Translations under genes and position numbers: made by a program
In this document: piece after piece, positions 14,897 to 59,511 of the stretch
How positions within the stretch are numbered: the stretch's first letter is position 1
Layout: each line of letters starts with the position of its first letter
The notes under the pieces: model-generated
The model's database searches: none
What the model saw: only the letters and a program-made list of their open reading frames with translations
What the model was told of the DNA's origin: nothing
Assembly (NCBI RefSeq): GCF_011045195.1
Contig: NZ_CP049199.1
Coordinates: 1,178,001 to 1,242,000, forward strand
Direction of reading: 5' to 3'
DNA length: 64,000 nucleotides
DNA from: Caulobacter soli
GTDB taxonomy: Bacteria > Pseudomonadota > Alphaproteobacteria > Caulobacterales > Caulobacteraceae

Positions 14897-17800
14897 ATGC
14901 CCTTCTCCGGCCAACTGTGGTACATCACCGAAGGCGGCGACGCCGACACCCGCCTCGCCCGCATCAATGACGACAACACCGGCGGCACGGTCGTCGTCGA
15001 CAACGGCGTCGCCGGCACGGGCGACGACAAGTTCGCCAGCTCGTTCACCGCCGATATCGGCGTGGACACGGCGGCGGGCTTCTATTTCGCGATCAACAAC
15101 AACACCATCAACGACCACGCCGTTCTGCTGCGCGGCAGCATCGGCAGCTCGGCGGCCCCGACCGCGGTGGTCACCTTCTCGACCTCGCTCATCGTCAACA
15201 CGATCGAGGTCGACGCCTTCACGCACAGGATCTACGTCGGGGTGCAGGATGGCGCGGGAACGAACGGCGCCATCACCGGCATCAAGGTCTACAGCTACGA
15301 CACGGCGGGCACGCTCACCGACCTGGGTTTCCTGACCACCGCCGATTCCGACAACCGCGCCAACGTGAACGGCACGCTCCATCTGCTCGATCCGCAGGAT
15401 TTCGCGCTCGACCGCTCGGTCGTCGCCGGCGGTCGCCTGTTCTACAGCGAGCGTCTGGGCAGCTCTTCCAATGCGCTGTATCGCCTTGACCTGACCTCGC
15501 CGGACACGGCGACCAACATGATCGCCGCCAGCGTCTTTCCGACGGACGGCAGCAACGGCCGGATCATCGACGTCGAGGTCGATGAGAGCAATCACAAGGT
15601 CTATTTCACGACCCGGTCGAACGCGGCCTCGCCCAGCGGCAGCTATGACGCCAACGACAACGCGGTCTGGTGGATCGACGCCAGCGCGACCGACGGAACC
15701 CCGACCAAGGTGACGTTCAGCGGCATGCCGGCCAACGTCTTCTTCGGCGGCGACATGACGTTCGACCAGTCGACGCGCCAGCTCTATGTCGAAAGCGAAG
15801 AGACCACCGGTTCCGACACCGACGACGTGATCTACGTCCTCCAGCTGAACGCCGCCGGCACGACCGCCACCTATATCCGCTCGATCTTTCCCTCGCCCGC
15901 CTTCACGGCGTCCGGCGCCAACATCGAAGGCCTGACCTTCACCGACCTGCCGGTCCTGACCGTCAGCGGCAACAGCACGGGCGCGACAGAGCAGGGCGCC
16001 ACGCTCACCGCGCTGACCGGCGCGCCGACGATCACCGACACCGACAGCGGCTACCTGGTCAGCGCCACGGTGCAGATCACGGGCGGTACGTTCTCGTCGA
16101 ACGAGAACAGCACCGCCGACGACCATCTGGGCTACAGCGGCAGCAAGCAGATCACCGGTACGATCGCCGGCACCAGCATCACGATCAGCTGGAACGCGGC
16201 GACCGAGACCCTGACGCTGACCGGTTACGACACCATCGCCAACTACCAGACCGCCATGGCGGGGCTGGTCTATTGGGCCACGGGCGACAACCCGACGAAC
16301 TACGGTTCCAACACCAGCCGCACCGTCACCTGGACGGTCAGCGACGGCTCGCCGGGCGTGCTGGCCGGTTCGGTCAACACGACCACCAGCACGATCAACA
16401 TAGCGGCGGTCAACGACGCGCCGGTCAACGGCACGGTGTCCGGCGCCACGGGCAACGAAAACGCCGATATCGCCGTCACGGGCCTGCAGATCAGCGACGC
16501 CGACGCCAATCCGGCCTCGGCCACGATGACGGTCACCCTGAGCGTGACCAAGGGCGTGCTGACCCTGCGGACCGATGTCGGCAGCGGCCTGACCGCGGGC
16601 GCCGTCAGCGGCAACGGCACGGGCACGGTGACCCTCACCGGCACGATCAACGCGATCAACGCCACCCTGGCGGCCAGCAACGGCCTGCTGTTCCACGGCA
16701 ACACCAATGTCAGCGGGACCGACACCCTGACGGTGGTCACCAGCGACGGCGGCTCCACCGGTTCGGGCGGCACGCTGAGCGACACCGACAACTACACCAT
16801 CACCATCATCGGCGTGAACGACGCGCCGACCGTGAGCGGCGACGGGACCGAGAGCGTCACCGCGAGCAACGAGGACATCAGCCCCACCACCCTGGCCAAC
16901 ACGGTCTCGGCCGTGTTCGGCGGCCAGTACGCCGACGGCGACGGCGACGCCTTCGCCGGCGTGGCCGTGATCGCCAACGGTTCGACCGCCGGCACGGGCC
17001 AGTGGCAGTACTGGAACGGCTCGACCTGGGTGAACATCGGCGCGACCTCGACGGCGGCGGCGGTCGAGCTGGCCGCCTCCACGGCGATCCGCTTCGCCCC
17101 GGCGACCGACTTCAACGGCCCGGCCCCGACCCTGACGGTGCGGCTGGTCGACGCCTCCAGCGGCGCGATCACCACCGGCGCGGTCGTCAACACCACCACC
17201 AACGGCGGCTCGACCGCCTTCAGCACCGGCACGGTGGTGCTGAGCCACGCGGTCACGGCCGTCAACGACGCGCCGACGGTCATCAACGGCTCGACCGTCA
17301 GCCTGACTTCGGTCGCCGAGGATTCCGCCCCCGGGGCCGGCCAGACCGTCTCCTCGCTGTTCGCCAGCCACTTCTCCGACGCCAAGGACACGGTCTCGGG
17401 CGGCTCGTCGGCCAACGCCTTCACCGGCATCGCGGTGACGGGCGACGCGGCGACCGCGGCGCAGGGCGTCTATCAATACTTCGAGGGCGGGACCTGGCAC
17501 GACCTGCCGGCGGTCTCGACCTCCAGCGCCTTCATCCTGGACGCCAGCACCCTGGTGCGGTTCGTGCCGGCGGCCGACTACAACGGCACGGCGCCGTCCC
17601 TGACCGTCTCGCTGATCGACGACGCGGCGGGCGCGGTGACCACCGGCGCCACGGCGGACCTGACCACCACCGGCGGCACGACGCCGTACAGCGCGTCCAT
17701 GACGCTGAACGTCGTCGTCACTGCGACCAACGACGCGCCGGTCGCCAGCGGTTCAGCCACCCTGACGGCGGTCGCCGAAGACGCCGCCAACCCGGCGGGC

Positions 17801-20800
17801 GCGACCGTCTCCAGCCTGTTCGCCTCGCACTTCAGCGACATCGACGGCGACAGCCTGGGCGGAGTGGCGATCACCGGCAACGCGGCGACGAGCCAGGGAA
17901 CGTGGCAGTACTCGACCGACAGCGGTTCCAACTGGAGCGCGGTCGGTTCGCCGGCCTTGAGCGCGGCCCTCGTGCTGCCCGCCAACGCCTTGATCCGGTT
18001 CCTGCCGGCGGCGAACTACAACGGGGCGGTTCCGGCCCTGACGGCCCACCTGATCGACAATTCGAGCGCGGTCAGCTTCAGCGCGTCGACCGACATCAGC
18101 GCGAATGGCGGCGCGACCCACTACAGCGGCGGCGCGGTCGACCTCACCACCAGCATCACGGCGGTGAACGACGCGCCCGTGGTTCCGGCCACCGCCACGA
18201 CGGTGAACGGGGTCGAGCAGGCCTTCTCGGCCCTGCTGGGCGGTCTCACGGTTTCGGACCTCGAGCTCGACGCCCGCAACGGCGGCCTGGGCGACTACGC
18301 CGGCGCCACCTTCACGGTCCAGCGCGCCTCGCCCAACGCCAGCGATCTGTTCGGCGTTCTCGCCAGCGGGCTGTTCACCGTCGACGCCGGCACCGGCGAT
18401 TTCCAGGCCGGGGGCCTGACCTTCGCCACCAGCAACCAAACCGGCAACGTGCTGACGATCACCTTCAACAGCTCGGGCACGGCGGCGACGACGGCGTTGG
18501 TCAACGACCTCATCCGACACATCGCCTATGAAAATACCAGCGACGCGCCCCCCGCGTCGGTGACGCTGAACTACAGCCTGAACGACGGCGGCGGCCAGGG
18601 AACCGGCGGCGCGCTTTCGGATAGCGGCTCGGTCATCTTCAACATCGCGGGCTCCAACGACGCTCCCACGGGCGGCGCCAGCATCACCGGCACGGCGGCC
18701 GAGGACCAGGTGCTGACGGCGGTCTCGACCCTGGCCGATCCGGACGGCCTGGGCACGCTGCACTACCAGTGGCAGCGCGACGTCGGCGGCGGTTATGTCA
18801 ATGTCGGAGCCGACCAGTCGACCTACACCTTGGGCGACGGCGACATCGGCGGCCTGATCCAGGTGAAGATCTACTATACGGACGCCGGCGGGACGTATGA
18901 GGAGGCGATCAGCACTCCGACGGTCGCGATCGTCGCCAGCAACGACACCCCGACCGGCGTCGTGTCGGTCACCGGCACGGCGGCCGAGGACCAGGTCCTG
19001 ACGGCCGACACCTCGACCTTGGCCGACTCCGACGGCCTGGGCACGTTGCATTACGACTGGCAGCGCGACACCGGCAGCGGCTTCGTCAGCATCGGCGCGG
19101 CCGATCAGGCCACCTATACCCTGGACGACGCCGACGTCGGCGCCACGATCCAGGTGGTGGTCCGCTATACCGACGGCCAGGGCTTCTCCAACACCGTCAC
19201 CAGCGGCCCCAGCGCGGCGATCGCCGGGGTCGACGACCCGCACACCGGCGGAGCGTCCATCACTGGCACGGCGACCGAGGACCAGGTCCTGACCGCGGTC
19301 TCGACCCTGGCCGACGTCGATGGCCTGGGCACGCTGCACTACGACTGGCAGCGCGACACCGGCAGCGGCTTCGTCAGCACCGGGGCGGCCGACCAGGCGA
19401 CCTACACCCTGGGCGACGCCGACGTCGGCGCCACGATCCAGGTGGTGATCAGCTACACCGACGGCCAGGGCTTCTCCGAAACGGCGACCAGCGCCGCGAC
19501 GGCGACGATCACCAACGTCAACGACCTTCCGACCGGTGGGATTTCGATCACCGGCACGACGACCGAAGACCAGGTCCTGACGGCCAACACCTCCAACCTG
19601 GTCGATCCCGACGGGCTGGGCACGTTCCACTATCAATGGACGCGTGGTGTCGGGACGGACACGGTCCTCGTCGGATCCGACCAGCCGACCTACACCCTGA
19701 CCGACGCCGACGTCGGCGAGCTGATCGGCGTGATCGTCACCTATACCGATCAGCGGGGCGCGGCCGAGCAGGTCAGCATCGTTGGCACCAACCCCATTGC
19801 TCCGGTCAATGACCTGCACACCGGCGGGGCGTCGATCACCGGCACGCCGACCGAGAACCAGGTCCTGACCGCCGTGTCGACCCTGGCCGACGTCGATGGC
19901 CTGGGCACGTTGCACTACGACTGGCAGCGTGACACCGGTTCGGGTTTCGTCAGTATCGGCGCGGCCGACCAGGCGACCTACACCCTGGGCGACGCCGACG
20001 TCGGCGCCACGGTCCAGGTGGTGATCAGCTACACCGACGGCCAGGGTTTCTCCGAAGCGGAGACCAGCACCGCGACGGCGGCCATCGCCAACGTCAACGA
20101 TCTCCCGACCGGCGTGGTGACGATCACCGGGACCAAGGCCGAGAACCAGGTTCTGACCGCCAATACTTCGGCTCTCGCCGACGCCGACGGCTTGGGGACG
20201 CTGCACTACGATTGGCAGCGCGACACCGGTTCGGGCTTCGTCAGCATCGGCGCGGCCGATCAGGCGACCTACACCCTGGGCGACGCCGACGTCGGCGCCA
20301 CGATCCAGGTGGTGATCAGCTACACCGACGGACACGCCACGAGCGAGACCGTGACCTCCTCGGCCACGACGGCCATCAGCGCGGTCAATGACGTGCACAC
20401 CGGCGGAGCGTCGATCACCGGCACGGCGACCGAGGACCAGGTCCTGACCGCCGTGTCGACCCTGGCCGACGTCGATGGCCTGGGCACGCTGCACTACGAC
20501 TGGCAGCGCGACACAGGTTCGGGTTTTGTCAGCATCGGCGCGGCCGACCAGGCGACCTACACCCTGGGCGACGCCGACGTCGGCGCCACGATCCAGGTGG
20601 TGATCAGCTATACCGACGGCCAGGGCTTCTCCGAAACGGCGACCAGCGCCGCGACGGCGACGATCGCCAACGTCAACGACCTTCCAACCGGTGGTGTGTC
20701 GGTCACCGGCACGGCGGCCGAGAACCTGACCCTGACGGCCGACACCTCGACCCTGGTCGATCTCGATGGGCTGGGCACGCTGCACTATCAATGGCAGCGC

Positions 20801-22858
20801 GACAGCGGCAGTGGCTTCGTCAATGTCGGAGCCGACCAGGCGACCTATGCGCTGACCGCGACCGATGTTGGCGCCGTCGTCCGCGTGGTGACCAGCTATA
20901 CCGACGATCACGGCACGGCCGAGTCGGCGACCAGCGCGGCCACCGCCACCGTCGCCCACATCAATCTCGCGCCCACCGGCGTCAACGACGCCAATGCGGT
21001 GACGCAGCGCCTGTCGGTCAGCGGTTCAGTCCGCACCAACGACAGCGACGCCGACGACACGCTCACAACGTTGACGGTGACCAATGTCGCCTTCAACACC
21101 ACCCATGTGGACCAGGCCGTCGTGGCCGGGGGCACGGTGGTGAACGGCGCAAACGGCAAGCTGACGATCCGGCCGGACGGGACCTACACCTACGTGGCCG
21201 ATCACGAGGGTCTGGTCGTTGGCCAGGTCGTGACCGACAAGTTCGACTATACGATCAAGGATCCCGGCGGCGCCGCGGGGACGGCCCAGCTGACGATCAC
21301 CATCACGGGATCCGCCACGGGCGACGCCAACGCCAACACCTTGATCAGCGACGGCACGGGCCACACCCTGACCGGCAAGGGCGGCGCCGACACCCTGACG
21401 GGCGCCGGCGGGGCCGACGTCTTCGCCTATGAGGCGGTCAGCGACAGCACGATCGCCAATTTCGACACGATCACCGACTTCACCCACGGCGTGGACACGC
21501 TGCGGCTGACGCCGCTGATGACCGGGTCGACCAAGCTGACCCTGACCACGGACGGGACCAACAAGATCCTGTCCATCGACCAGAACGGCGATGGCACGGC
21601 CGACGGTCAGATCAAGTCGCTGGGCCAAGGCCTGCAGGTGAAGGATATCGTCACCGGCGTGGCGCATTTCGGCTTCACGATCAACGGTTCGGCCGGCGCC
21701 GACAGCCTCCACGGCGGCAACGGCGGCGACATTCTCACCGGCGGGGCCGGGGCCGACACCTTCTATTACGACGACGGCGACTCGCCGATCCTGCACTGGG
21801 ACGTGATCACCGACTTCCAGACCGGCCAGGACAAGCTGAACATCTCGGCGGCCGACGACGGCATCGTCATTCTCGCGCGCTTCGGCCTGAGCACCTTCAT
21901 CTATTTCGGCGGCCTGGGTAATTCCAGCGTCGTGCAGGTCTTCGGCGACATCAAGCTGTCGGACCTGATCACCAGCAACGGCGTCAGCTTCTCGATGTAC
22001 GGCGACGATAGCGCCAGCAGCGGCGGCGGCGACAACAACGCCGCCCTGGCCGGCGGGAGTGGGGACGACGTTCTGGTGGGGCGCACGACCGACTCCACCC
22101 TGTTCGGCGGCGACGGGGCCGACATCATGTACGGCGGCGACGCCCACGACACCTTCCAGTACACCTCGGTCACCAACTCGAACTTCAGCGCTTACGACAG
22201 CGTCATCGACTTCACCCCCGATGAGGACAAGATCGACATCTCGGCGATCGACGGCGGCAAGATCACCATCGCGCGCTTCGCCGGGACGACCTTCATCTAT
22301 TCGGCCCCCGACGCCGGCGGAAACTTCCAGTCGGTGATCACGGTCCAGGGGACGTCGCTGAAGGCCTCCGACGTGATCGGCAGCGGCGGGGCCACCCAGG
22401 CCTTCACGATGGTCGGCGACAGCACCAGCCACAACATCGCCGACACCCTGATCGCCGGGGCCGGCAACGACATCCTCTACGGCCTGGACGGGAACGACAC
22501 CCTGACCGGCGGCGGCGGGGCCGACTTCATGATCGGCGGCGCCGGGGCGGACACCTTCGTCTATACCGCCGCGACCGACAGCAGGCCGGTGGCCACGGAT
22601 CTGATCTTCGATTTCAGCCACGCCGACGGCGACAGGCTGGACCTGAGCGGCATCGACGCCAATTCGGGCACGGGGGCCAACGACGCCTTCTCGGTGGTGA
22701 CCAGCTTCTCGCAGACAGCGGGCCAGCTGATCATCGCCGCGCCGGACAGCTCGGGCTATTACCATGTCTCGGGCGACTTGAACGGCGACGGGATCGCGGA
22801 CTTCGTGATCGCCCTGAACGTCACCGGCACGCTCACCTCGGCGGACATCCTGCTGTAG
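14897..22858 (+). CDS. Giant RTX-type secreted protein/adhesin with Ig-like and cadherin-like repeats (2,653 aa)
   Basis: This protein is very probably exported by a type I secretion system: it has no N-terminal signal peptide, no useful cysteines in the repeats, and a C-terminus with RTX nonapeptides. Layout: residues 1-350 form a beta-propeller-like head (LWYITEGGDADTRLARINDD); 350-640 two Ig/cadherin-like units; 645-1093 three units of about 150 aa, each with a SSLFASHF-type core and NDAP boundary; 1093-1258 a further unit; 1259-2027 eight 96-aa repeats; 2028-2140 a VCBS-like unit; 2140-2653 four serralysin-like RTX blocks (GGADTLTGAGGADVF, GGNGGDILTGGAGADTF, GGDGADIMYGGD, GNDTLTGGGGADFM). 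ATG 14897 has AAAGGA. Secretion genes are not in the window. Role: surface or biofilm adhesion, inferred. Confidence 0.92.
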   Translation: MPFSGQLWYITEGGDADTRLARINDDNTGGTVVVDNGVAGTGDDKFASSFTADIGVDTAAGFYFAINNNTINDHAVLLRGSIGSSAAPTAVVTFSTSLIVNTIEVDAFTHRIYVGVQDGAGTNGAITGIKVYSYDTAGTLTDLGFLTTADSDNRANVNGTLHLLDPQDFALDRSVVAGGRLFYSERLGSSSNALYRLDLTSPDTATNMIAASVFPTDGSNGRIIDVEVDESNHKVYFTTRSNAASPSGSYDANDNAVWWIDASATDGTPTKVTFSGMPANVFFGGDMTFDQSTRQLYVESEETTGSDTDDVIYVLQLNAAGTTATYIRSIFPSPAFTASGANIEGLTFTDLPVLTVSGNSTGATEQGATLTALTGAPTITDTDSGYLVSATVQITGGTFSSNENSTADDHLGYSGSKQITGTIAGTSITISWNAATETLTLTGYDTIANYQTAMAGLVYWATGDNPTNYGSNTSRTVTWTVSDGSPGVLAGSVNTTTSTINIAAVNDAPVNGTVSGATGNENADIAVTGLQISDADANPASATMTVTLSVTKGVLTLRTDVGSGLTAGAVSGNGTGTVTLTGTINAINATLAASNGLLFHGNTNVSGTDTLTVVTSDGGSTGSGGTLSDTDNYTITIIGVNDAPTVSGDGTESVTASNEDISPTTLANTVSAVFGGQYADGDGDAFAGVAVIANGSTAGTGQWQYWNGSTWVNIGATSTAAAVELAASTAIRFAPATDFNGPAPTLTVRLVDASSGAITTGAVVNTTTNGGSTAFSTGTVVLSHAVTAVNDAPTVINGSTVSLTSVAEDSAPGAGQTVSSLFASHFSDAKDTVSGGSSANAFTGIAVTGDAATAAQGVYQYFEGGTWHDLPAVSTSSAFILDASTLVRFVPAADYNGTAPSLTVSLIDDAAGAVTTGATADLTTTGGTTPYSASMTLNVVVTATNDAPVASGSATLTAVAEDAANPAGATVSSLFASHFSDIDGDSLGGVAITGNAATSQGTWQYSTDSGSNWSAVGSPALSAALVLPANALIRFLPAANYNGAVPALTAHLIDNSSAVSFSASTDISANGGATHYSGGAVDLTTSITAVNDAPVVPATATTVNGVEQAFSALLGGLTVSDLELDARNGGLGDYAGATFTVQRASPNASDLFGVLASGLFTVDAGTGDFQAGGLTFATSNQTGNVLTITFNSSGTAATTALVNDLIRHIAYENTSDAPPASVTLNYSLNDGGGQGTGGALSDSGSVIFNIAGSNDAPTGGASITGTAAEDQVLTAVSTLADPDGLGTLHYQWQRDVGGGYVNVGADQSTYTLGDGDIGGLIQVKIYYTDAGGTYEEAISTPTVAIVASNDTPTGVVSVTGTAAEDQVLTADTSTLADSDGLGTLHYDWQRDTGSGFVSIGAADQATYTLDDADVGATIQVVVRYTDGQGFSNTVTSGPSAAIAGVDDPHTGGASITGTATEDQVLTAVSTLADVDGLGTLHYDWQRDTGSGFVSTGAADQATYTLGDADVGATIQVVISYTDGQGFSETATSAATATITNVNDLPTGGISITGTTTEDQVLTANTSNLVDPDGLGTFHYQWTRGVGTDTVLVGSDQPTYTLTDADVGELIGVIVTYTDQRGAAEQVSIVGTNPIAPVNDLHTGGASITGTPTENQVLTAVSTLADVDGLGTLHYDWQRDTGSGFVSIGAADQATYTLGDADVGATVQVVISYTDGQGFSEAETSTATAAIANVNDLPTGVVTITGTKAENQVLTANTSALADADGLGTLHYDWQRDTGSGFVSIGAADQATYTLGDADVGATIQVVISYTDGHATSETVTSSATTAISAVNDVHTGGASITGTATEDQVLTAVSTLADVDGLGTLHYDWQRDTGSGFVSIGAADQATYTLGDADVGATIQVVISYTDGQGFSETATSAATATIANVNDLPTGGVSVTGTAAENLTLTADTSTLVDLDGLGTLHYQWQRDSGSGFVNVGADQATYALTATDVGAVVRVVTSYTDDHGTAESATSAATATVAHINLAPTGVNDANAVTQRLSVSGSVRTNDSDADDTLTTLTVTNVAFNTTHVDQAVVAGGTVVNGANGKLTIRPDGTYTYVADHEGLVVGQVVTDKFDYTIKDPGGAAGTAQLTITITGSATGDANANTLISDGTGHTLTGKGGADTLTGAGGADVFAYEAVSDSTIANFDTITDFTHGVDTLRLTPLMTGSTKLTLTTDGTNKILSIDQNGDGTADGQIKSLGQGLQVKDIVTGVAHFGFTINGSAGADSLHGGNGGDILTGGAGADTFYYDDGDSPILHWDVITDFQTGQDKLNISAADDGIVILARFGLSTFIYFGGLGNSSVVQVFGDIKLSDLITSNGVSFSMYGDDSASSGGGDNNAALAGGSGDDVLVGRTTDSTLFGGDGADIMYGGDAHDTFQYTSVTNSNFSAYDSVIDFTPDEDKIDISAIDGGKITIARFAGTTFIYSAPDAGGNFQSVITVQGTSLKASDVIGSGGATQAFTMVGDSTSHNIADTLIAGAGNDILYGLDGNDTLTGGGGADFMIGGAGADTFVYTAATDSRPVATDLIFDFSHADGDRLDLSGIDANSGTGANDAFSVVTSFSQTAGQLIIAAPDSSGYYHVSGDLNGDGIADFVIALNVTGTLTSADILL
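18671..20977 (+). repeat. Eight tandem 96-aa (about 288-bp) repeats arranged as four dimers
   Basis: Each unit begins G-G/V-x-S-I/V-T-G-T and ends at N-D-x-P/H-T, with the core DWQRDTGSGFVSIGAADQAT. Units alternate in two types: odd units have LTAVSTLAD, even units have LTA[DN]TS-x-L and one extra residue. Units 3, 5 and 7 are nearly identical at DNA level. This indicates amplification of a two-unit (about 576-bp) block and possible length variation by recombination. Confidence 0.9.
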
Positions 22859-22865
22859 CGCTTTC

Positions 22866-22900
22866 GCGGCCAGATCAATCTTGAGTATTGATCTGGCCGC
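22866..22900 (+). terminator. Perfect 14-bp stem hairpin after the giant gene
   Basis: GCGGCCAGATCAAT pairs perfectly with 22887-22900 around a 7-nt loop, starting 8 bases after the stop codon. The stem is very stable but is not followed by a T-run, so it may act in both directions or protect the mRNA end. Confidence 0.65.
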
Positions 22901-22995: not shown

Positions 22996-24972
22996 GTGAC
23001 CCGCACCCTCAGCGCCAGCGCTCAGGCGCCGCGCGATCCAGCGCTCAAGACGATCGACAAGATGGCGCTGCGGGCGATCGCCCAGGCCGCGGTCGACGTC
23101 GAGCTGTTCACGATCCCGCTCTACATGACCAGCCTCTATTCGATCCAGGGCATGCACGCGATCACGGGGCAGGGGAACGACTTCTACCAAGGTCGCCTGT
23201 GGCCCGGAGCCAAGACCTCGGCCAACCCCATCACCGCCAACGAGCACGCCTTTAACCTGGTGTTCTCGGTGTTCATCCAGGAGATGCTGCACCTGCAGAT
23301 GGCCGCCAACATGGCCACGGTGCTGGGCGTCAGTCCCCGCTTCACCGACACCGCCCTGCAGGACGACCGCCACGGCTGGACCTGCTACGGGCCGACCAAC
23401 AGCGTCATCCCCAACATCATCGACCTGAAGGACACGATCCACCACGAGGACGTGCCGGTGAACGTGGGGCCGCTGTCGGACGTGCTGTTGCGGCTGTTCA
23501 TCGCCATTGAGCAGCCCGAGATCGACGCCCGGGCCAACATCAAGCCCGGCAAGGAAAAGGCCTATTTCCCCAAGGCGCCGTTCGCCGACTGGAAGCCCGG
23601 CCAGCCCCTGCCGAGGTTCGGCACCATCGGCTGGATGTACCAGTGCTACTATGACTATCTGAGCCTGGCCTACAGCGACGGCTCCACCCTGTGGGACGCG
23701 CTGTTCACGCCCACGGCCGTGCAGAACGACCTGTTCAACAGCTTCTCCTCGCCCGGCCATCCGATGCGCGAGTTCATGGGCTTCGAGACCACGATCGCCA
23801 CCACCGACAAGGCCATCGCCTTCGAGCAGATGGTCTCGATGATGGACGCCATCACCGACCAGGGCGAGGGCAGCGAGATCCAGCGCCGACCCCAACTGCT
23901 GCAGGCGGTCAAGCCCAAGTATCAGCCGTCGGACACCGCTCTGCGCGCCGACTATCCCAGCTATGACGACACCGGGCGGCAGATCCCGTCGGCCGACGCC
24001 GTGGCGCGGTCCGACAACGACCCGATGGACCACTACGAGCGGTTCAAGAAGGTGCTGGACCTGCTGCCCCAGATCGTCACCTGGCCGATGTGGCTGAAGG
24101 CGAACGGCCCCTGGACGGCCAAGGAGCTGCAGGGGCCGGACTATGATCCGTCCAACCCTCTCAAGCTGCCGACCCCCGACGAACTGGCGGCGGCGCTGAA
24201 CGCCCTGAACGAACCGACCGCCCAGGCCAACAGTCATACCCTGCTCAGCCAGGCGGTGATCGGCGCGATCGCCGGGGTGACGACGGTGCTCAACGACTAC
24301 TGGAACCCGCCGGCCACCGGGCCGGTGCTTTTCCCGTTCCCGTCGATGGCGGGATCGGGCGACCGGATGTCGATCGCCTGGGCGGTTCTGGGCCTGACGC
24401 CCGACCTGTCGATCGGCCTGGATCCGGCCACGCCGGGCAAGCTCTATCATTCGTGCCAGGCGTTGGACCTCGACGGGACCGGCGACAACGGCTGCGCCGC
24501 CGTCGAGATCTTCCACACCTGCCGCGGCTCCAACAACTGCCACGCCCAGGGCGGCTGCGGTTTCGTCCAGCCGGTGGGCGGCGGCGGCAACTGCGGTTCG
24601 GCGGTGGTGGTGCGCGGCGGCGCGGGTGTCGGGGTCGGCGGCGGCTGCGGCCTGCCGCCCCAGAAGCTGTACTCGGCGCCCAGCGACAACAAGTGCGGTG
24701 GGTTCGGCGGCTGCGCCGTGCCGATCTCGGCCTCGCAGGTGTTCCCGGCCACGGGCCAGATGCAGCTGTACGACTTCGTTGAAGGTAGCGAAGGCAAGGA
24801 TGGCTGGCAGTCTGTGCCCTTCGGCGACCCCATGCTGTATCAGCGCGGCGAGAAGGTGCACGACGTGGCCTATCGCGCCTATCAGGCGGTGATGACGCAT
24901 CGGGGCAAGACGGTTCCGGCCGATCCTCCGGCGGCGGACAATCTGCGCCTCGTCTTCCCGCCATCGACGTGA
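22996..24972 (+). CDS. Ferritin-like (VioB-type) protein with a bufferin-like Cys-rich C-terminal segment (658 aa)
   Basis: The N-terminal 230 residues match the ferritin-like domain found in VioB-type iminophenylpyruvate dimer synthases. Candidate di-iron ligands are Glu36 ([11 protein letters not shown]), Glu96 and His99 (QEMLHLQ) and Glu172 (IAIEQPE). The C-terminal segment (487-573) has nine cysteines, including [15 protein letters not shown] with spacing C-x5-C-x5-C (Cys509, 515, 521), the pattern seen in BufA2-type bufferin precursors, then glycine-rich CGS, CGL and KCGGFGGC. No signal peptide is visible. GTG 22996 was chosen because CGGAGG precedes it by five bases; ATG 22888 lies in the terminator. 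The next two genes encode the DUF692/DUF2063 pair that modifies bufferins, so this is probably their substrate. Fusion of enzyme and precursor is the odd feature. Confidence 0.82.
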
Positions 24973-24985
24973 CGAGGGGGACCTG

Positions 24986-25873
24986 ATGGCCGGTCGCCAG
25001 CCCCGCGCGCCCCGCCTGGGCCTGCCCAACCTGGGCGACGGGGTGGGGCTGCGCGAGCCGCATTTCCCGCACTTGATGGCGACGCCCCCGGCCGACTGGG
25101 GCGTCGACTGGTTCGAGGTGATCAGCGAGAACTTCCTCGATCATGCGGGCTATGCCGCTCACGTGCTGGAGGTGGTGGCCGCCCATCGGCCGGTGGTGAT
25201 GCACGGGGTGTCGTTGTCGATCGGCGGCGCCGACCCGCTGGACGTCATCTATCTGGACAAGCTGGCGGCCCTGGCCGACCGCATCCAGCCGGCCTGGATT
25301 TCGGACCATCTGTGCTGGACCGGGGTGGCGGGGATCAACACCCACGACCTGCTGCCTCTGCCACTGACGGAGGCCGCCCTGGCCCATGTGATCGATCGGG
25401 TGAAGGCCGTGCAGGACCGCCTGGGCCGGCCGCTGATCCTGGAGAACCCCAGCAGCTATCTGGAATTCCACGCCTCGCAGATGCCCGAATGGGAGTTCCT
25501 GGCCCGGCTGGCCGAGGCGGCCGACTGCGGCCTACTGCTGGACGTCAACAATGTCCATGTCAGCGCCTTCAACCATGGCTTCGATCCCATGGCCTATATC
25601 GCCGCCATTCCGGCCGAGCGGATCGTGCAGACCCATCTGGCCGGCCCCAGCGACTTTGGCACGCACCTGATGGACACCCACGACGCTCCGGTGCCCGACG
25701 CGGTCTGGCCGCTCTACGCCGAGGTGCAGGCGCGAACCGGCGGGGTCTCGACCCTGCTGGAATGGGACGCCAACATTCCCCCGTGGCTGGACCTGCTGGC
25801 CGAGTTGGCCAAGGCGAGCGCGGCGCGGGAGGGGTGGTCGCCCGCCGAGGAAGCGGTTCGCGCCCATGGTTGA
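24986..25873 (+). CDS. DUF692 multinuclear non-heme iron oxidative enzyme (MNIO, BufB-like)
   Basis: This 295-aa TIM-barrel enzyme belongs to the family of MbnB, TglH and BufB, which use two or three irons and O2 to modify cysteines in peptides. Metal-site motifs are all present: ISENF (residues 47-50), [10 protein letters not shown] (His73), ISDHLCW (Asp107, His108), NTHDLLPLP (His120), ILENPSS (Glu153), DVNNVHVSA (Asp186-Asn188), THLAG (His217), DTHDA (Asp230-His232) and LEWDANIP (Glu259). It starts 13 bp after the ferritin-like gene with GAGGGGG as ribosome-binding site and overlaps the DUF2063 gene by 8 bp. It is probably the catalytic member of a modification pair acting on the Cys-rich segment upstream. 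Confidence 0.93.
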
Positions 25874-26678
25874 GCCCGAGCTGGCCACCATGCAGCGCTG
25901 GATGCAGGGGGCGATCCTGGGGCGTGCCGCGCCGCTGGACGTCGACGCCGTCGTTGTCGGTGCCGCCCAGGACCAAGGCGGGCTGACCGCCGCCCAGCGC
26001 CTGGGCCTCTACGCGCGGGGCTATCGCGCCCGGTTGATGGAGTGTCTGACCGCCGAATTTCCGTGCCTGTTGGCCTTGGCCGGCGAGCAGGTGTTCCAGC
26101 TGTTCGCGGCCGGCTACATCGCCGCGCGGCCGTCGACCGATCCCAGCCTCTACGGCCTGGGCGCGGGTTTCGCCGACTATCTGGAGGCCACGCGGCCCGC
26201 CGGCGACGACGGTCCCGCCGCGCTGTCGGCCCTGCCGGCCGAGCTGGCGCGCCTGGACCGGGCGCGGGCCGAGGTCCAGCGCGCGGCCGGAGTTGAGCGC
26301 CTGGGCGGACCGGTTCTGGCCGCCGACCTGCTGCTGACCCCAGGCGCGCGGCTGCGGCGGCCCGACAGCGTGCGGCTGCTGACCCTGGGCTTCGATCCGG
26401 GGCCGCTGCTGGCCGCCGTCGATCGGGGCGGACCGATTGATCCGCCGCCGCCCTGTCCGACCCCGGTCGCCGTGGCCCGCAGTCGCTGGCGCGTCGCCGT
26501 CCACGCCCTGCCGGTCTGGCGTTACGCTTGGCTGGAGGCGTTGGGGGAGGAGGGGGCCGACGTTCACGTGGCCGCCGCCCGCGCGGCCCAGGCCAGCGGC
26601 CGAGAGACCGGCGCGGTGATCGCTGACTTGGCGCTGTGGTTGCCGACGGCGGCGGGGCTGGGATTGGTGACGATCTAA
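25866..26678 (+). CDS. DUF2063 (BufC/MbnC-like) partner of the DUF692 enzyme
   Basis: The 270-aa product has the DUF2063 N-terminal helical domain ([53 protein letters not shown]), which in related systems binds the precursor and presents it to the DUF692 enzyme. The C-terminal half is the usual alpha/beta extension with [21 protein letters not shown] 25866 overlaps the upstream stop by 8 bp, so the pair is translationally coupled and likely forms a stoichiometric complex. Recognition of a full-size ferritin-like protein instead of a short peptide would be new for this family. Confidence 0.9.
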
Positions 26679-29275: not shown

Positions 29276-31516
29276 CTAGAACTTCACCGCCAGCGAGACG
29301 CTGTAGTTGCGGTCGGGCTGGGTGTAGGCGTCCTTGACGACGGAGTTGTCGGCCAGGCCGCGCACGTCGCCCCACCAGGCGTAGGTCTGGCCGGTGAGGT
29401 TGAAGACGCCGCCGCGCAGGGTGACGTTGTCGGTGACGTTCCAATAGGCCGTCAGGTCGAACACCGTGAATTCCTTGGGCATCCAGCAGTAGTCCGAACC
29501 GGTCAGGGTGCGGGGCGGCGTGCCGGTGGTGATCGAGCAGCTGACGCCCGAGCGACCGGCCGACTCCTTGGCCGAGTGGACGGCGTTCAACGCGCCGCCG
29601 AACCGGCCGGCCGGATCGCGGTACGACAGGCCGGCGACGACCTTGACCGGGTCGATGGTGACCAGCGGGGCCTTCACGCCGTTGTTCTCGGAATTGCCGC
29701 GAGCGTAGGAGGCCGCGCCCTGCAGAGTGAAGCCGTGGCCCAGCTCGGTGACGAAGCGGGCCTCGGCGCCGCTGATCTCGGCCTTGGACTGATTGATGTA
29801 CTGGTAGACCGCCGGATTGGTGGGGGTGAACGCGCCGCGCACCTGCACCTGCTCGATGAAGTCGTCGTACTTACCGGTGAAGCCGGTGACGCTGGCGTTC
29901 CAGGTCGGACGGTTCAGGCGGAAGCCCAGCTCGAAGGTCTCGCTGGTCTCGGGCTTCAGGTCGGGGTTGGACACCGACATGTAGTTGGAGACCAGGTTGG
30001 CGAAGCCGTTGTTGACCTGCGAGGGCGAGGGGGCCTTGAAGCCGGCGGCGGCGTTGGCGAACACGGTCACCAGGTCGGTGGCTTTCCACACCACGCCCAG
30101 CTTGGGCGAGACGTGGCTGTCGCTCTGGCTGGCCGGCACGTTGGCGGTGAACAGGGCGTCCTTCTTGGGCTCCAGCTTGTAGTAGTCGAAGCGCACGGCC
30201 GGATAGAAGGTGACCGGGCCAACCGCGACCTCGTCCTGCGCATAGGCGCCGGCCAGGGTGTAGTCGGTGGTCGGGAAGGCGCGGGTGGGGAAGGTCTCGC
30301 CGGCGGGCGGCACGGTGCCGTCGCGCACGCCTTCCTGGCGGGTGATCGAGGCGTCGCCGCCCCAGACGAACTTGTTGGTCACGCCGCCGATCGTGGCGTC
30401 GCTATGCAGTTCCAGCGCCGCGCCCCAGACTTCGTTGTCGAAGGTGGCGTCGCGGGTGCGGTCGACGGCGGTGTTGCGGTCTTCGGCCGAATACTGCCGG
30501 GTGGTGCTGTTCTGGTAGTACAGCGTGGTTTGGGCCGATTGGATCAGGCCCTGGCCGCCGGTGTAGCGGTGGTCGAAGCTGACGCGGTCGCGCTTCATCT
30601 TGTCGAAGGCGGTCAGGCCCAGCACGCTGGTCGAGGCCAGCGGCGGCTTGGCGATGGCGCTCAGCACCGTCCAGCTGGTGTCGCTGTCCAGGTGGTCATA
30701 GGTCAGGCGGAAGCGGTTCTGGTCGTTCAGGGTGTAGACCACCCGGGCCAGCACGGCGTTGGACTGGTCGTCCTCGGGGTTGGCGGTGGTGCGGTCGGTG
30801 TTGGCCGAGTCGTTGGTCCCGGCCGTCTTCTGGCCCTCGCCGTCGCGACGGGTATAGGCGACCATGCCTTCCCAATTGCCGCTCTGGCCGGCGGCGGTCA
30901 GGCTTTCGGTCCAGCTCTCGTCGGCCGAGGCGTAGCCGACGCGGCCGCGCAGGGCGAAGCTCTTGCCGCCCGTCAGCAGGTCGGACGGATCCTTGGTGAA
31001 GTAGTTGACCGAACCGGCCAGGCCGTCGCTGCCGTAGAGCGCGCTGGCCGGGCCGCGCACGATCTCGACCGACTTCAGGGTGTCCAGGTCGACATAGTCG
31101 CCGCGACCCATGTTCTGGGCGCCGAAGGCGTAGCCGTCGGGCACGCGCACGCCGTCGACCATGATCAGGACGCGGTTGCCTTCCAGGCCGCGGATGTTGA
31201 AGCCGCTGTTGCCGTCGCGGCCCGTCGAGGCGCCGGCGGCGGTGAAGCGGGCGGGGGCGCGGCGCACCGAGACGCCGGGCTCGAAGCGGACCAGGTCCTT
31301 GATGTCCTTGACCAGGCCGTCCTCGATGTCCTGGTCGGAGATCACGCTGGCGGTCACCGGGGCGTCCTGCAGCTTCTTCTCCGAGCGGGTGGCGGTGACC
31401 GTCACCTTGTCGAGTTCGGCGGCGTCGGAGGCGGTTTCGGCCGCGAAAGCAGCCTGAGCGCAGAGCAGGGCCGACGCAGAGGCGGCGGCGAAACAGACGA
31501 GTTTGGCGCGAGACAT
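29276..31516 (-). CDS. TonB-dependent outer-membrane receptor, haem/haemoglobin-type
   Basis: The 746-aa product has a Sec signal peptide (CFAAASASALLCAQAAFAAE), a TonB box region (LDKVTVTATRSEKK), a plug domain with IRGLEGNRVLIMVDGVRVPD and VEIVRGPASALYGSDGLAGS, and a 22-strand barrel ending in F (YSVSLAVKF). The plug and GGVFNLTGQTYAWWGDVRGL near the end resemble HutA/HmuR-like haem or haemoglobin receptors. ATG 31516 fits the signal peptide; the ribosome-binding site is weak. It is divergent from the DUF4198 gene, and two perfect dyads between them suggest control by a Fur-type repressor. Substrate may be haem, iron chelate or another metal complex. Confidence 0.92.
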   Translation of the reverse strand: MSRAKLVCFAAASASALLCAQAAFAAETASDAAELDKVTVTATRSEKKLQDAPVTASVISDQDIEDGLVKDIKDLVRFEPGVSVRRAPARFTAAGASTGRDGNSGFNIRGLEGNRVLIMVDGVRVPDGYAFGAQNMGRGDYVDLDTLKSVEIVRGPASALYGSDGLAGSVNYFTKDPSDLLTGGKSFALRGRVGYASADESWTESLTAAGQSGNWEGMVAYTRRDGEGQKTAGTNDSANTDRTTANPEDDQSNAVLARVVYTLNDQNRFRLTYDHLDSDTSWTVLSAIAKPPLASTSVLGLTAFDKMKRDRVSFDHRYTGGQGLIQSAQTTLYYQNSTTRQYSAEDRNTAVDRTRDATFDNEVWGAALELHSDATIGGVTNKFVWGGDASITRQEGVRDGTVPPAGETFPTRAFPTTDYTLAGAYAQDEVAVGPVTFYPAVRFDYYKLEPKKDALFTANVPASQSDSHVSPKLGVVWKATDLVTVFANAAAGFKAPSPSQVNNGFANLVSNYMSVSNPDLKPETSETFELGFRLNRPTWNASVTGFTGKYDDFIEQVQVRGAFTPTNPAVYQYINQSKAEISGAEARFVTELGHGFTLQGAASYARGNSENNGVKAPLVTIDPVKVVAGLSYRDPAGRFGGALNAVHSAKESAGRSGVSCSITTGTPPRTLTGSDYCWMPKEFTVFDLTAYWNVTDNVTLRGGVFNLTGQTYAWWGDVRGLADNSVVKDAYTQPDRNYSVSLAVKF

Positions 31517-31542
31517 TAGGAGACCCCCGGGTCCTGTTGTTA

Positions 31543-31559
31543 ATGCGAATTGTTCGCAT
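31543..31559. promoter_or_regulatory. Perfect dyad ATGCGAA-TTG-TTCGCAT near the TonB receptor start
   Basis: This 7+3+7 inverted repeat lies 27 bp upstream of the receptor ATG and is well placed to overlap its promoter. It is probably an operator; the regulator is not identified. Confidence 0.6.
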
Positions 31560-31612
31560 CTATTGGGCGGTGAGCTACGGCCATCGCGCGCCTTGGTCAA
31601 GCTAAATGAGAT

Positions 31613-31627
31613 TGATTCTTAGAATCA
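31613..31627. promoter_or_regulatory. Fur/Zur-like 7-1-7 dyad TGATTCT-T-AGAATCA
   Basis: The perfect 7-1-7 inverted repeat has the TGAtnnT-n-AnnATCA form of Fur-superfamily boxes. It sits 51 bp before the DUF4198 start and 97 bp before the receptor start, so it could control both. Confidence 0.6.
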
Positions 31628-31677
31628 CTAGCAGTAGGGCTTCCAGCGACGCTTTCCTGAATCCGGAGATTCCGCCC

Positions 31678-32475
31678 ATGCGCCGTTCGCTATCCTTCGC
31701 CGCCTTCGCGATCGGCGCGACCCTCGCCGGCGCCTTGGCCGGCGCGGCCCAGGCCCACTCGCCCTACCTGCTGCCGACCGTGTTCGACGCGTCCGACCGC
31801 AAGCTTGTGACGGTGCAGGGTTCGTTCACCGAGAGCTTCTTCACGCCCGAAGTCGTGATGAAGTCGGACGCCTGGGCGGTGGTCGGGCCGGACGGCGCGC
31901 GCAAAGCCCTGACGCCGACCAACCTGCGCGAACTGGCCCTGGTCGAGGTGCCCACCGAGGCGGCCGGCACCTATCGCATCACCAGCGGCCAGCGCACCGG
32001 CCGCACCGCCAAGGCGGTGCTGGTCAAGGGCGAGTGGGAGTTCATCGAGGATCCCAGCAAGGCCCCGGCCGGGACCACGCCCGTCGACATGCAGAGCCTG
32101 ACCCTGGCCGATGTCTATGTCACGCGCGGGGCGCCCACCACGGCCGCCCTCGCCCCGGTCGGCAAGGGCCTGGAGTTCGTGGCCGTCACCCATCCCAGCG
32201 AGATCACCACCGGCCAGGACGCCAAGTTCGTGGTGCTGTTCGACGGCAAGCCGGTGAAGGGCCAGGCCGTCACCCTGCACGGCGCCGACGATCACTACGC
32301 CGAGGCCAAGGCCGCGCCGATCACCGTCACCAGCGACGACCAGGGCCGCTTCACGATCAAGCCGGGCCACTCGGGCGTCTACCAGATCCAGGCCCGCTAC
32401 CGCGTCGCCCCGACCGCCGCCGATCCGGTCGGCCACTCCTACACCTACGCTCTCACCTTCGAATCCCTGCGCTGA
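31678..32475 (+). CDS. DUF4198 periplasmic protein, metal-uptake associated
   Basis: The 265-aa protein has a signal peptide cut near QAHSPY. The DUF4198 body contains SPYLLPTVFDASDRKLVTVQ and ends with the beta-sandwich DDQGRFTIKPGHSGVYQIQA. His residues at the mature N-terminus (AHSP) and in TLHGADDHYAEA could bind metal. Members are often found next to TonB receptors and Ni/Co or iron uptake genes, as here. ATG 31678 has GGAG upstream. The EF-hand gene follows 14 bp later, so both are probably under the Fur-like dyad. Confidence 0.85.
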   Translation: MRRSLSFAAFAIGATLAGALAGAAQAHSPYLLPTVFDASDRKLVTVQGSFTESFFTPEVVMKSDAWAVVGPDGARKALTPTNLRELALVEVPTEAAGTYRITSGQRTGRTAKAVLVKGEWEFIEDPSKAPAGTTPVDMQSLTLADVYVTRGAPTTAALAPVGKGLEFVAVTHPSEITTGQDAKFVVLFDGKPVKGQAVTLHGADDHYAEAKAAPITVTSDDQGRFTIKPGHSGVYQIQARYRVAPTAADPVGHSYTYALTFESLR

Positions 32476-58852: not shown

Positions 58853-59452
58853 TTACCCGCCCCACACCTGCTTCAGGCGCAGGTCGCGGCCGCAGCCCAG
58901 GCGGTAGACGTTGTAGTCGATGGAGTGGTTCTTGGCGTAGTCGCGGTGATAGGCCTCGGCCGGCCAGAAGGTCTTCAGGTCCAGGATCTGGGCCTTCATC
59001 GTGCCGGACTTCAGGCGCTTGGCGGCCTCGGCGCGGGACTTTTCGGCGATCGGGCGCTGGTCGGGGGTGACGAACACCGCCGGGCGGTAGGACGGGCCGC
59101 GGTCGCAGAACTGGCCGCCATCGTCGGTGGGGTCGACCAGCTTCCAGTACTTGTAGAGCAGGAAGCCGTAGTCGAGCTTGGCCGGGTCGTAGGTGACGCG
59201 CACCGACTCGTAGTGGCCCGAGGTCTCGCTGGTCACATCACGATAGGTGGGGCGGTCGACATGGCCCCCGGTGTAGCCGCTCTCGACCTTCAGCACCCCC
59301 GGAATGCCGCCCATGTCGTGCTCCATGCACCAGAAGCAGCCGCCGGCGAACACGGCGGTCGCGGGCGGGGCGGGCTTGCCGGCCGCCAGCACGTCGGCGG
59401 GCAGTACGATGGCGGCGAAACTGGCGATCAGGACGAGCAGGCGGCGGATCAT
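58853..59452 (-). CDS. msrA: Peptide-methionine (S)-S-oxide reductase with signal peptide
   Basis: This second MsrA (199 aa) has a signal peptide (LLVLIASFAAIVLPADVLAA), so it should repair periplasmic proteins. The active site is GGCFWCMEHDMGGIPGVLKV with Cys39 and an adjacent Cys42 (CFWC), and the C-terminal cysteine is in VYRLGCGRD. ESGYTGGHVDRPTYRDVTSE is family-typical. ATG 59452 is used. Confidence 0.94.
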   Translation of the reverse strand: MIRRLLVLIASFAAIVLPADVLAAGKPAPPATAVFAGGCFWCMEHDMGGIPGVLKVESGYTGGHVDRPTYRDVTSETSGHYESVRVTYDPAKLDYGFLLYKYWKLVDPTDDGGQFCDRGPSYRPAVFVTPDQRPIAEKSRAEAAKRLKSGTMKAQILDLKTFWPAEAYHRDYAKNHSIDYNVYRLGCGRDLRLKQVWGG

Positions 59453-59511
59453 CGAAGGTCTCCGGAAGGACGTACCTCTAGATACGGATCGGGCGATGGA
59501 AAGGTTACACC

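What the first reader, a model, noticed from the sequence alone, without database searches (positions are those of the whole stretch)
22996..26678. Ferritin-like enzyme fused to a bufferin-like Cys segment, next to its likely modifying pair
Seen: the 658-aa protein joins a VioB-type ferritin-like domain (Glu36, Glu96, His99, Glu172) to a 487-573 segment with nine cysteines, including [15 protein letters not shown] (C-x5-C-x5-C). Known: BufA2-type bufferins carry repeats like CKGxNxCKGQGGC and are modified by DUF692 and DUF2063 proteins (BufB/BufC). Both follow here within 13 bp and with an 8-bp overlap. Inference: the modifying pair acts on a large enzyme, not a small exported peptide, perhaps installing thiooxazole or similar heterocycles that bind metal close to a di-iron centre. 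The absence of a signal peptide is also unlike bufferins.
Basis: partly seen in the sequence, partly recalled or inferred. Interest (0 to 1): 0.9.

Follow-up and report, generated by a model that had tools for sequence, protein, structure and literature searches.

The report
Ferritin-like enzyme carrying a bufferin-like loop
A large ferritin-like bacterial protein carries a conserved cysteine-rich loop related to copper-binding bufferin peptides and is encoded together with the kind of enzyme pair that chemically converts such cysteines, which suggests that this chemistry can be applied to a whole protein rather than only to small exported peptides.

Summary
A 658-aa PF12902 ferritin-like protein with a nine-Cys segment is followed by MNIO (DUF692) and PME-type 1 (DUF2063) genes. 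In 61 of 62 public loci both follow directly; the 62nd contig ends there. Seven segment cysteines are invariant in 62 of 62. In surveys, ferritin-like genes with the segment have the pair nearby (8 of 8); those without do not (0 of 22). A second family (type B) has a Cys segment bridging ours to BufA2 bufferin precursors, and its profile picked up two real BufA2 genes. The linked MNIOs form one group with conserved active-site positions. AlphaFold folds the body (3HL1-like) but not the segment. No signal peptide and no recurrent fourth gene were found. Best reading: MNIO+PME1 install thiooxazole-type groups on this loop, giving a soft-metal (probably Cu(I)) site on a dimetal ferritin-like protein. 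Modification, metal and mechanism are untested. Paper searches found no such pairing; it departs from the published link between PME-type 1 and signal-peptide precursors.

The parts
22996..24972 (+). 658-aa ferritin-like protein with Cys-rich segment (proposed MNIO substrate); GTG start
   Evidence: homologues in 62 loci
23083..23877 (+). PF12902 match (residues 30-294); structural ferritin-like body extends to about residue 472. Candidate dimetal ligands E36, E96, H99, E172, E291, H346
24454..24714 (+). Cys-rich segment, residues 487-573, nine Cys, seven invariant; mostly low-confidence in the model
24514..24564 (+). Core block [17 protein letters not shown] (residues 507-523), C-x5-C-x5-C
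   Evidence: H507, the three Cys, G511, S512, N513, G520, G522, F523 in 62 of 62
24733..24969 (+). C-terminal folded module (residues 580-658: beta hairpin, helix, ...LRLVFPPST); not seen in type B
   Evidence: PP[SA]T end in 118 of the 120 best homologues
24986..25873 (+). MNIO (DUF692/PF05114) of the bufferin-maturase kind, 295 aa; catalytic base candidate D261 (by motif)
25866..26678 (+). PME-type 1 partner protein (DUF2063/PF09836), 270 aa
22888..22915 (+). Possible sigma-70-type promoter TTGATC-N16-TAAGAT; in the window and seven Caulobacter loci CAACCTAAG recurs in 8 of 8 and TTGAT at the same place in 6 of 8
   Evidence: by eye, no scan statistic
22866..22900 (.). Perfect 14-nt inverted repeat between the upstream RTX gene and the operon (terminator-like; overlaps the possible -35)

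Best explanation
The three genes are a self-contained unit that makes a modified metalloprotein. The MNIO, with its PME-type 1 partner, acts in the cytosol on the disordered Cys-rich segment of the ferritin-like protein. It converts some of the invariant cysteines (most likely within C509-x5-C515-x5-C521 and C567-x5-C573) to 5-thiooxazoles or a close relative, as bufferin-type MNIO/PME1 pairs do on small precursors. The product stays attached as a soft-metal (most likely Cu(I)) ligand loop on a ferritin/Mn-catalase-type dimetal protein, and protects against copper or peroxide stress by binding Cu(I) next to an O2/H2O2-handling centre. Shown: gene linkage, segment conservation, similarity of pattern to BufA2, conserved MNIO active-site positions, conserved candidate dimetal ligands, no signal peptide by a hydropathy rule. 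Inferred: modification, its chemistry, copper, the coupling of the two sites, and the stress role.
For: (1) MNIO then PME1 directly follow in 61 of 62 loci, the 62nd contig ending at the gene. (2) Seven segment Cys invariant in 62 of 62. (4) Similarity chain type A - type B - BufA2 above all 60 column shuffles at each step; the type B profile finds BufA2 genes followed by MNIO+PME1 in two genomes (per-genome E 3.5e-7 and 8.3e-5). (5) Of 202 hits to the type B Cys region, the 120 listed all carry PF12902; proteins under about 390 aa were outside that search. (6) The linked MNIOs, including the one beside type B, form one group (99/98); 12 His/Asp/Glu positions are identical in all 92 MNIOs of the tree. 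(7) Segment of low confidence in both models while most of the bodies fold. (8) The only families shared by three or more genus labels in up to 6 kb of flank are the three genes, plus an antisense artefact (crude gene calling). (9) Published: MNIO/PME1 pairs broadly install 5-thiooxazole and such products bind copper (PMC13097082, sections and passages).
Against: No modification has been seen. PME-type 1 partners are published as going with signal-peptide precursors, whose signal peptide may be part of the recognition (PMC12452194, passages); this protein has none. The direct match of our own segment to BufA2 covers only 18-19 columns, and the Cys-segment profile found no small relative at E<=0.001 beyond what look like fragments of the same protein (25 of the 91 hits read). 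No sigma-F (copper) promoter stands out before the operon, unlike the bufferin-1 locus of the same genome, so a copper role rests on analogy. Type B gene context is known from one genome only (G096). The fork joining our MNIOs to bufferin-2 MNIOs is not strongly supported (81/90) and also holds one bufferin-1 MNIO (L105).
Confidence: 0.62

Rival explanations
1. The pair does modify the segment, but the group serves the enzyme's catalysis: a protein-derived cofactor (electron relay or second metal site) of a dimetal oxidase/peroxidase rather than metal buffering.
For: Candidate dimetal ligands kept in 62 of 62 (E36 in 61) and extra invariant C130 and C217 in the body. Two PF12902 groups carry the segment.
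Against: No reaction is known to me for 3HL1-type proteins. The distance between segment and dimetal site is unknown.
Confidence: 0.25
2. The Cys segment is an unmodified zinc- or iron-sulphur-binding element, and MNIO+PME1 act on another peptide encoded elsewhere.
For: No modification is shown. Another PF12902 protein is fused to what look like metal-binding modules (G302: ferredoxin-like and two CDGSH-like motifs, by eye).
Against: The pair follows only the segment-bearing genes (8 of 8 against 0 of 22). No fourth recurrent gene is near. The segment resembles BufA2, a known kind of MNIO substrate.
Confidence: 0.13
3. The ferritin-like protein is a helper enzyme of a small RiPP pathway (VioB-like chemistry), with the segment serving only as a docking site for the pair.
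For: PF12902 is the VioB-type family (recalled; some hits are named iminophenyl-pyruvate dimer synthase by UniRef).
Against: No recurrent small precursor, transporter or tailoring gene in the flanks (ORFs under 70 aa were not considered).
Confidence: 0.06

Closest known systems
Bufferin-2 (BufA2/Buf_6-12Cys) gene clusters
   Same: Gene order substrate-MNIO-PME1; MNIO in the same part of the tree (fork 81/90); C-x5-C motifs with N and G at matching places
   Different: Substrate is a 658-aa folded ferritin-like protein without signal peptide; no recurrent DoxX or sigma factor genes; motif GSNxCxxxGGCGF instead of CKGxNxCKGQG
Captophorins (fontiphorin, oxazolin, gonophorin; 5-thiooxazole by MNIO+PME1)
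   Same: MNIO+PME1 pair; catalytic Asp kept (E-W-D here, E-R-D there)
   Different: Residue after the catalytic Asp is Ala in the window's MNIO, Phe in the EGKCG-type MNIOs sampled (7 of 7); no EGKCG repeats
Bufferin fusion proteins (MerC|Buf1, MerC|Buf2, Buf1|Cytochrom_C|FGE-sulfatase; PMC12452194, section 14)
   Same: Bufferin-type domain joined to a larger protein
   Different: Those are described as a few instances; the MerC fusions are membrane proteins with the bufferin domain in the periplasm. The word ferritin does not occur in that main text; its supplements were not seen
3HL1 (CC_0557, Caulobacter vibrioides ferritin-like protein)
   Different: 317 aa chain, too short to hold the Cys segment and C-terminal module

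Membership tests
Bufferin-type gene cluster | MNIO of the bufferin-maturase family | tested here: met
   NF050167 348.4 bits against cut-off 310; group near BufB2 MNIOs
Bufferin-type gene cluster | PME-type 1 (DUF2063) partner directly after the MNIO | tested here: met
   PF09836 61.4 bits, cut-off 27.2; NCBIfam HvfC only 20 bits, cut-off 142; 61 of 62 loci, one uninformative
Bufferin-type gene cluster | Substrate gene directly before the MNIO, with conserved Cys motif | tested here: met
Bufferin-type gene cluster | Small precursor with Sec signal peptide | tested here: not met
   658 aa; hydrophobic uncharged N-terminal stretch in 1 of 120 type A (first 24 residues) and 2 of 120 type B (first 30) proteins against 13 of 13 BufA precursors. 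A first, looser rule did not separate the sets, because helix 1 of type A fell inside it
Buf2 (BufA2) precursor family | Profile similarity to BufA2 core | tested here: inconclusive
   Direct: score 25.2, null max 19.6, but only 18 columns, prob 43%; through type B: 64.1 and 43.5; no NCBIfam family matched the segment at E<=10
Bufferin-type gene cluster | Sigma-F control in Caulobacter | tested here: not met
   GTAACC-N16-CGAA with up to 2 mismatches: 33 in the window, 32.4 expected; nearest upstream one (22820-22845) has 2 mismatches inside the RTX gene. At the bufferin-1 locus one exact and one 1-mismatch site
Captophorin (5-thiooxazole) class | 5-thiooxazole installed on Cys, ~305 nm absorbance, Cu binding | not testable with these tools
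   needs mass spectrometry/NMR
PF12902 ferritin-like family | Profile and fold | tested here: met
VioB (iminophenyl-pyruvate dimer synthase) | Indolic imine coupling within a vio-type operon | not tested
   no recurrent partner genes; activity not addressed

The most novel reading that the evidence does not exclude
MNIO/PME1 pairs have been recruited to build a protein-derived thiooxazole cofactor inside a large cytosolic dimetal enzyme. A bufferin-2-like substrate module was joined, perhaps twice, to ferritin-like bodies, giving a hybrid Cu-thiooxazole/dimetal active protein: a cofactor biogenesis system rather than a RiPP pathway.
Probability: 0.3. Interest if true: 0.92.

Novelty: new variant of a known kind. 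Interest (0 to 1): 0.74.

Why it matters
If true, a RiPP-type modification is used to equip a folded intracellular metalloprotein with a metal-binding heterocycle. That widens the role of MNIO enzymes from exported peptides to protein cofactors, and shows that PME-type 1 partners can recognise substrates without a signal peptide. The unit is three genes long, found in at least twelve named genera, and easy to express and test.

Tried and rejected
Chance motif: rejected by invariance. Known family for the segment: no NCBIfam match. Anti-phage defence genes: none in PADLOC. Small free-standing relatives of our segment: of the 91 hits I read 25; 20 of these end in PPST or PPAT like the full protein, and I take them for fragments or mis-started copies. 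Cys-segment profile over 398 genomes: 9 genomes matched; G000, G256 and G096 clearly, six weakly (E 0.001-0.006, several with stops), treated as chance. First neighbour clustering by longest ORF was discarded because antisense ORFs dominate GC-rich DNA; one search used codon-position GC instead and is still crude. More type B contexts were sought in 78 and 9 genomes without a new one.

Limits of the survey: the genome sets partly overlap and partly overlap. Of the 22 segment-less proteins, 3 (G069, G185, G049) are short weak matches, and G253, G049 and one side of G026 had only about 0.8-1.4 kb of flank. The second Pseudoalteromonas plasmid hit (H2) was not fetched and is not counted. The 92 plasmid records (PF12902-like matches, none covering 80% of the type B query) were not checked for MNIO genes. 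Of 43 PF05114 places, 13 had no new locus; 12 of these were not examined (the other is L003). Labels buf1, buf2 and EGKCG in the tree are mine, by eye from the upstream ORF. Of 21 BufA2-like rows six were dropped.

Literature: searches; supplements could not be opened, so a mention in a supplementary table is possible.
Full report
What is there. The genome is Caulobacter-like (nearest named proteins are from Caulobacter). It has one PF12902 match and two MNIO matches. The second MNIO lies in what looks like an ordinary bufferin-1 operon, with a DUF2282-type precursor and a DoxX-like gene next to an ECF sigma factor gene (L003, by eye).

Conservation. A scan of one genome per species gave 62 loci. 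In 61 the MNIO and PME1 genes follow directly in the same order; in the other (L010) the contig ends at the ferritin-like gene. Twelve genera are named in the records: Caulobacter, Sphingomonas, Chromobacterium, Janthinobacterium, Massilia, Undibacterium, Ralstonia, Trinickia, Vibrio, Motilimonas, Pokkaliibacter and Marinobacterium. Cys 487, 500, 509, 515, 521, 567 and 573, and the body cysteines 130 and 217, are identical in 62 of 62; Cys 551 in 60 and Cys 533 in 55. The stretch between about 525 and 560 varies in length. One search found 923 homologues at E<=0.001; of the 120 listed, 120 have a C-x5-C-x5-C block and 103 the strict H-x-C-[RK]GSN-x-C-x3-[GS]GCGF block.

Link between segment and enzyme pair. 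Pfam PF12902 was searched in 299 and 289 genomes (partly the same genomes), a type B profile in 293 more, and our protein in the plasmid collection. Counting each ferritin-like protein once, those with the Cys segment have MNIO and PME1 nearby in 8 of 8 cases (own, G256, G096, G329, G744, G690, G769, Pseudoalteromonas plasmid L154). Those without it have neither in the flank held in 22 of 22 (16, 4, 2). G256 and G329 have the contig lengths of L011 and L018. The rows are related to each other, so no probability is given.

A second family. The PF12902 survey also brought up a distant protein in G096. Its ferritin body is as far from ours as segment-less relatives are (44.8 bits to our family profile), yet it has its own Cys segment, MNIO and PME1. 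A search with its residues 480-700 found 202 proteins of about 390-1240 aa; all 120 listed carry PF12902. Names given include Sphingomonas, Collimonas, Kordiimonas, Tahibacter, Crocosphaera and Myxococcota. I call them type B. Their segment reads HACMGLNxC...NxCAGQGYC...HxCHVxNxCxxQGGCG...NxCx5CATPI, with a further conserved tail ACGxSGxSGAGxC (109 of 120). Type B gene context is known only in G096.

Relation to bufferins. Twenty-one BufA2-like rows were collected from genomes with a query taken from upstream of an MNIO in G032; 15 that show the six-Cys pattern were kept. Profile comparison: type A with type B 64.1 (60 column shuffles 11.8 +/- 2.6, max 19.7); type B with BufA2 43.5 (9.9 +/- 2.0, max 15.2); type A with BufA2 25.2 (10.6 +/- 2.2, max 19.6). 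The shuffles keep composition but not order within the segment, so this shows a shared pattern, not strict descent. Independently, the type B profile picked up two small BufA2-like genes with signal-peptide-like N-termini, each followed by MNIO and PME1.

MNIO tree. In a tree of 92 MNIOs the 62 ferritin-linked enzymes (61 loci and the window) plus the one beside type B form one group (99/98). The next fork (81/90, not strong) adds two bufferin-2 MNIOs, one of unknown substrate and one bufferin-1 MNIO (L105). The other 15 bufferin-1 MNIOs and the seven EGKCG MNIOs lie apart (long-branch warnings given). Twelve His/Asp/Glu positions are identical in all 92, among them D261, which by its motif is the catalytic Asp of FonB (PMC13097082). 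The MNIO thus goes with the Cys segment across two very different ferritin bodies. In trees of the bodies alone, types A and B are separate clades with segment-less proteins between them; a single clade was rejected in a first test (p-AU 0.013) and not quite in a fuller one (p-AU 0.057).

Location and surroundings. No signal peptide by a hydropathy rule (1 of 120 type A, 2 of 120 type B, 13 of 13 BufA; a looser first rule did not separate the sets). In up to about 6 kb on each side no fourth gene family recurs in three or more genus labels, apart from an antisense artefact of the MNIO frame. The absence of a recurrent exporter or protease fits a product that stays part of the protein. Sigma-F sites were found at the bufferin-1 locus but none near this operon above chance.

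Literature. PMC13097082 (abstract; sections 7, 10, 13, 14; passages) shows that MNIO/PME1 pairs install 5-thiooxazoles and that such products bind copper. PMC12452194 (abstract; sections 13, 14, 17; passages) surveys MNIO substrates, notes long precursors and a few bufferin fusions, suggests that MNIOs may modify proteins, links PME-type 1 partners with signal-peptide precursors, and does not contain the word ferritin in its main text. PMC3511200 and PMC8224329 (passages) give the sigma-F and copper data for Caulobacter bufferin operons. PMC4417212 and PMC12114271 (passages) mention PF12902 or VioB without DUF692. Searches for ferritin-like with MNIO and ferritin with 'multinuclear non' found no paper; ferritin-like with DUF692 found one, where the two terms are unrelated.

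Conclusion. It should be filed as a new variant of the bufferin/MNIO kind: it meets the enzyme and gene-order features but fails the small-secreted-precursor feature. The chemistry and function remain to be tested.

Noticed in passing
L003 (G000:C1:751304-755092): Bufferin-1-type operon of the same genome (DUF2282-type precursor, MNIO, DUF2063, DoxX-like; by eye) next to an ECF sigma factor gene, with an exact and a one-mismatch sigma-F promoter motif.
   Followed up: partly
window 59483-59508 (-): One-mismatch sigma-F-type site about 30 bp before an ORF at 58853-59452 (-) that looks like an exported peptide methionine sulfoxide reductase MsrA (by motif, recalled); possible further sigma-F target. 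The total count of sites in the window is at chance level.
   Followed up: no
L097 (G302:C7, PF12902 gene): PF12902 ferritin-like protein joined to a ferredoxin-like stretch and two CDGSH-like motifs (by eye): another metal module attached to the same kind of body.
   Followed up: no
L099 and L101 (G365, G422): PF12902 proteins whose N-termini look like twin-arginine signals (RRRFLQAA, RRAFLRTA), so other members may be exported, unlike this family.
   Followed up: no
window 14897-22858 (+): 2653-aa RTX protein (serralysin C-terminal, RTX and cadherin-like domains) directly upstream; a similar gene end lies upstream of the operon in several Caulobacter relatives (by eye).
   Followed up: partly
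window 29276-32475: TonB-dependent receptor divergent from a DUF4198 protein, a possible metal-uptake pair, a few kb downstream.
   Followed up: no
type B proteins, C-terminus (A4): Extra conserved tail ACGxSGxSGAGxC (109 of 120), a second possible MNIO target not seen in type A.
   Followed up: no
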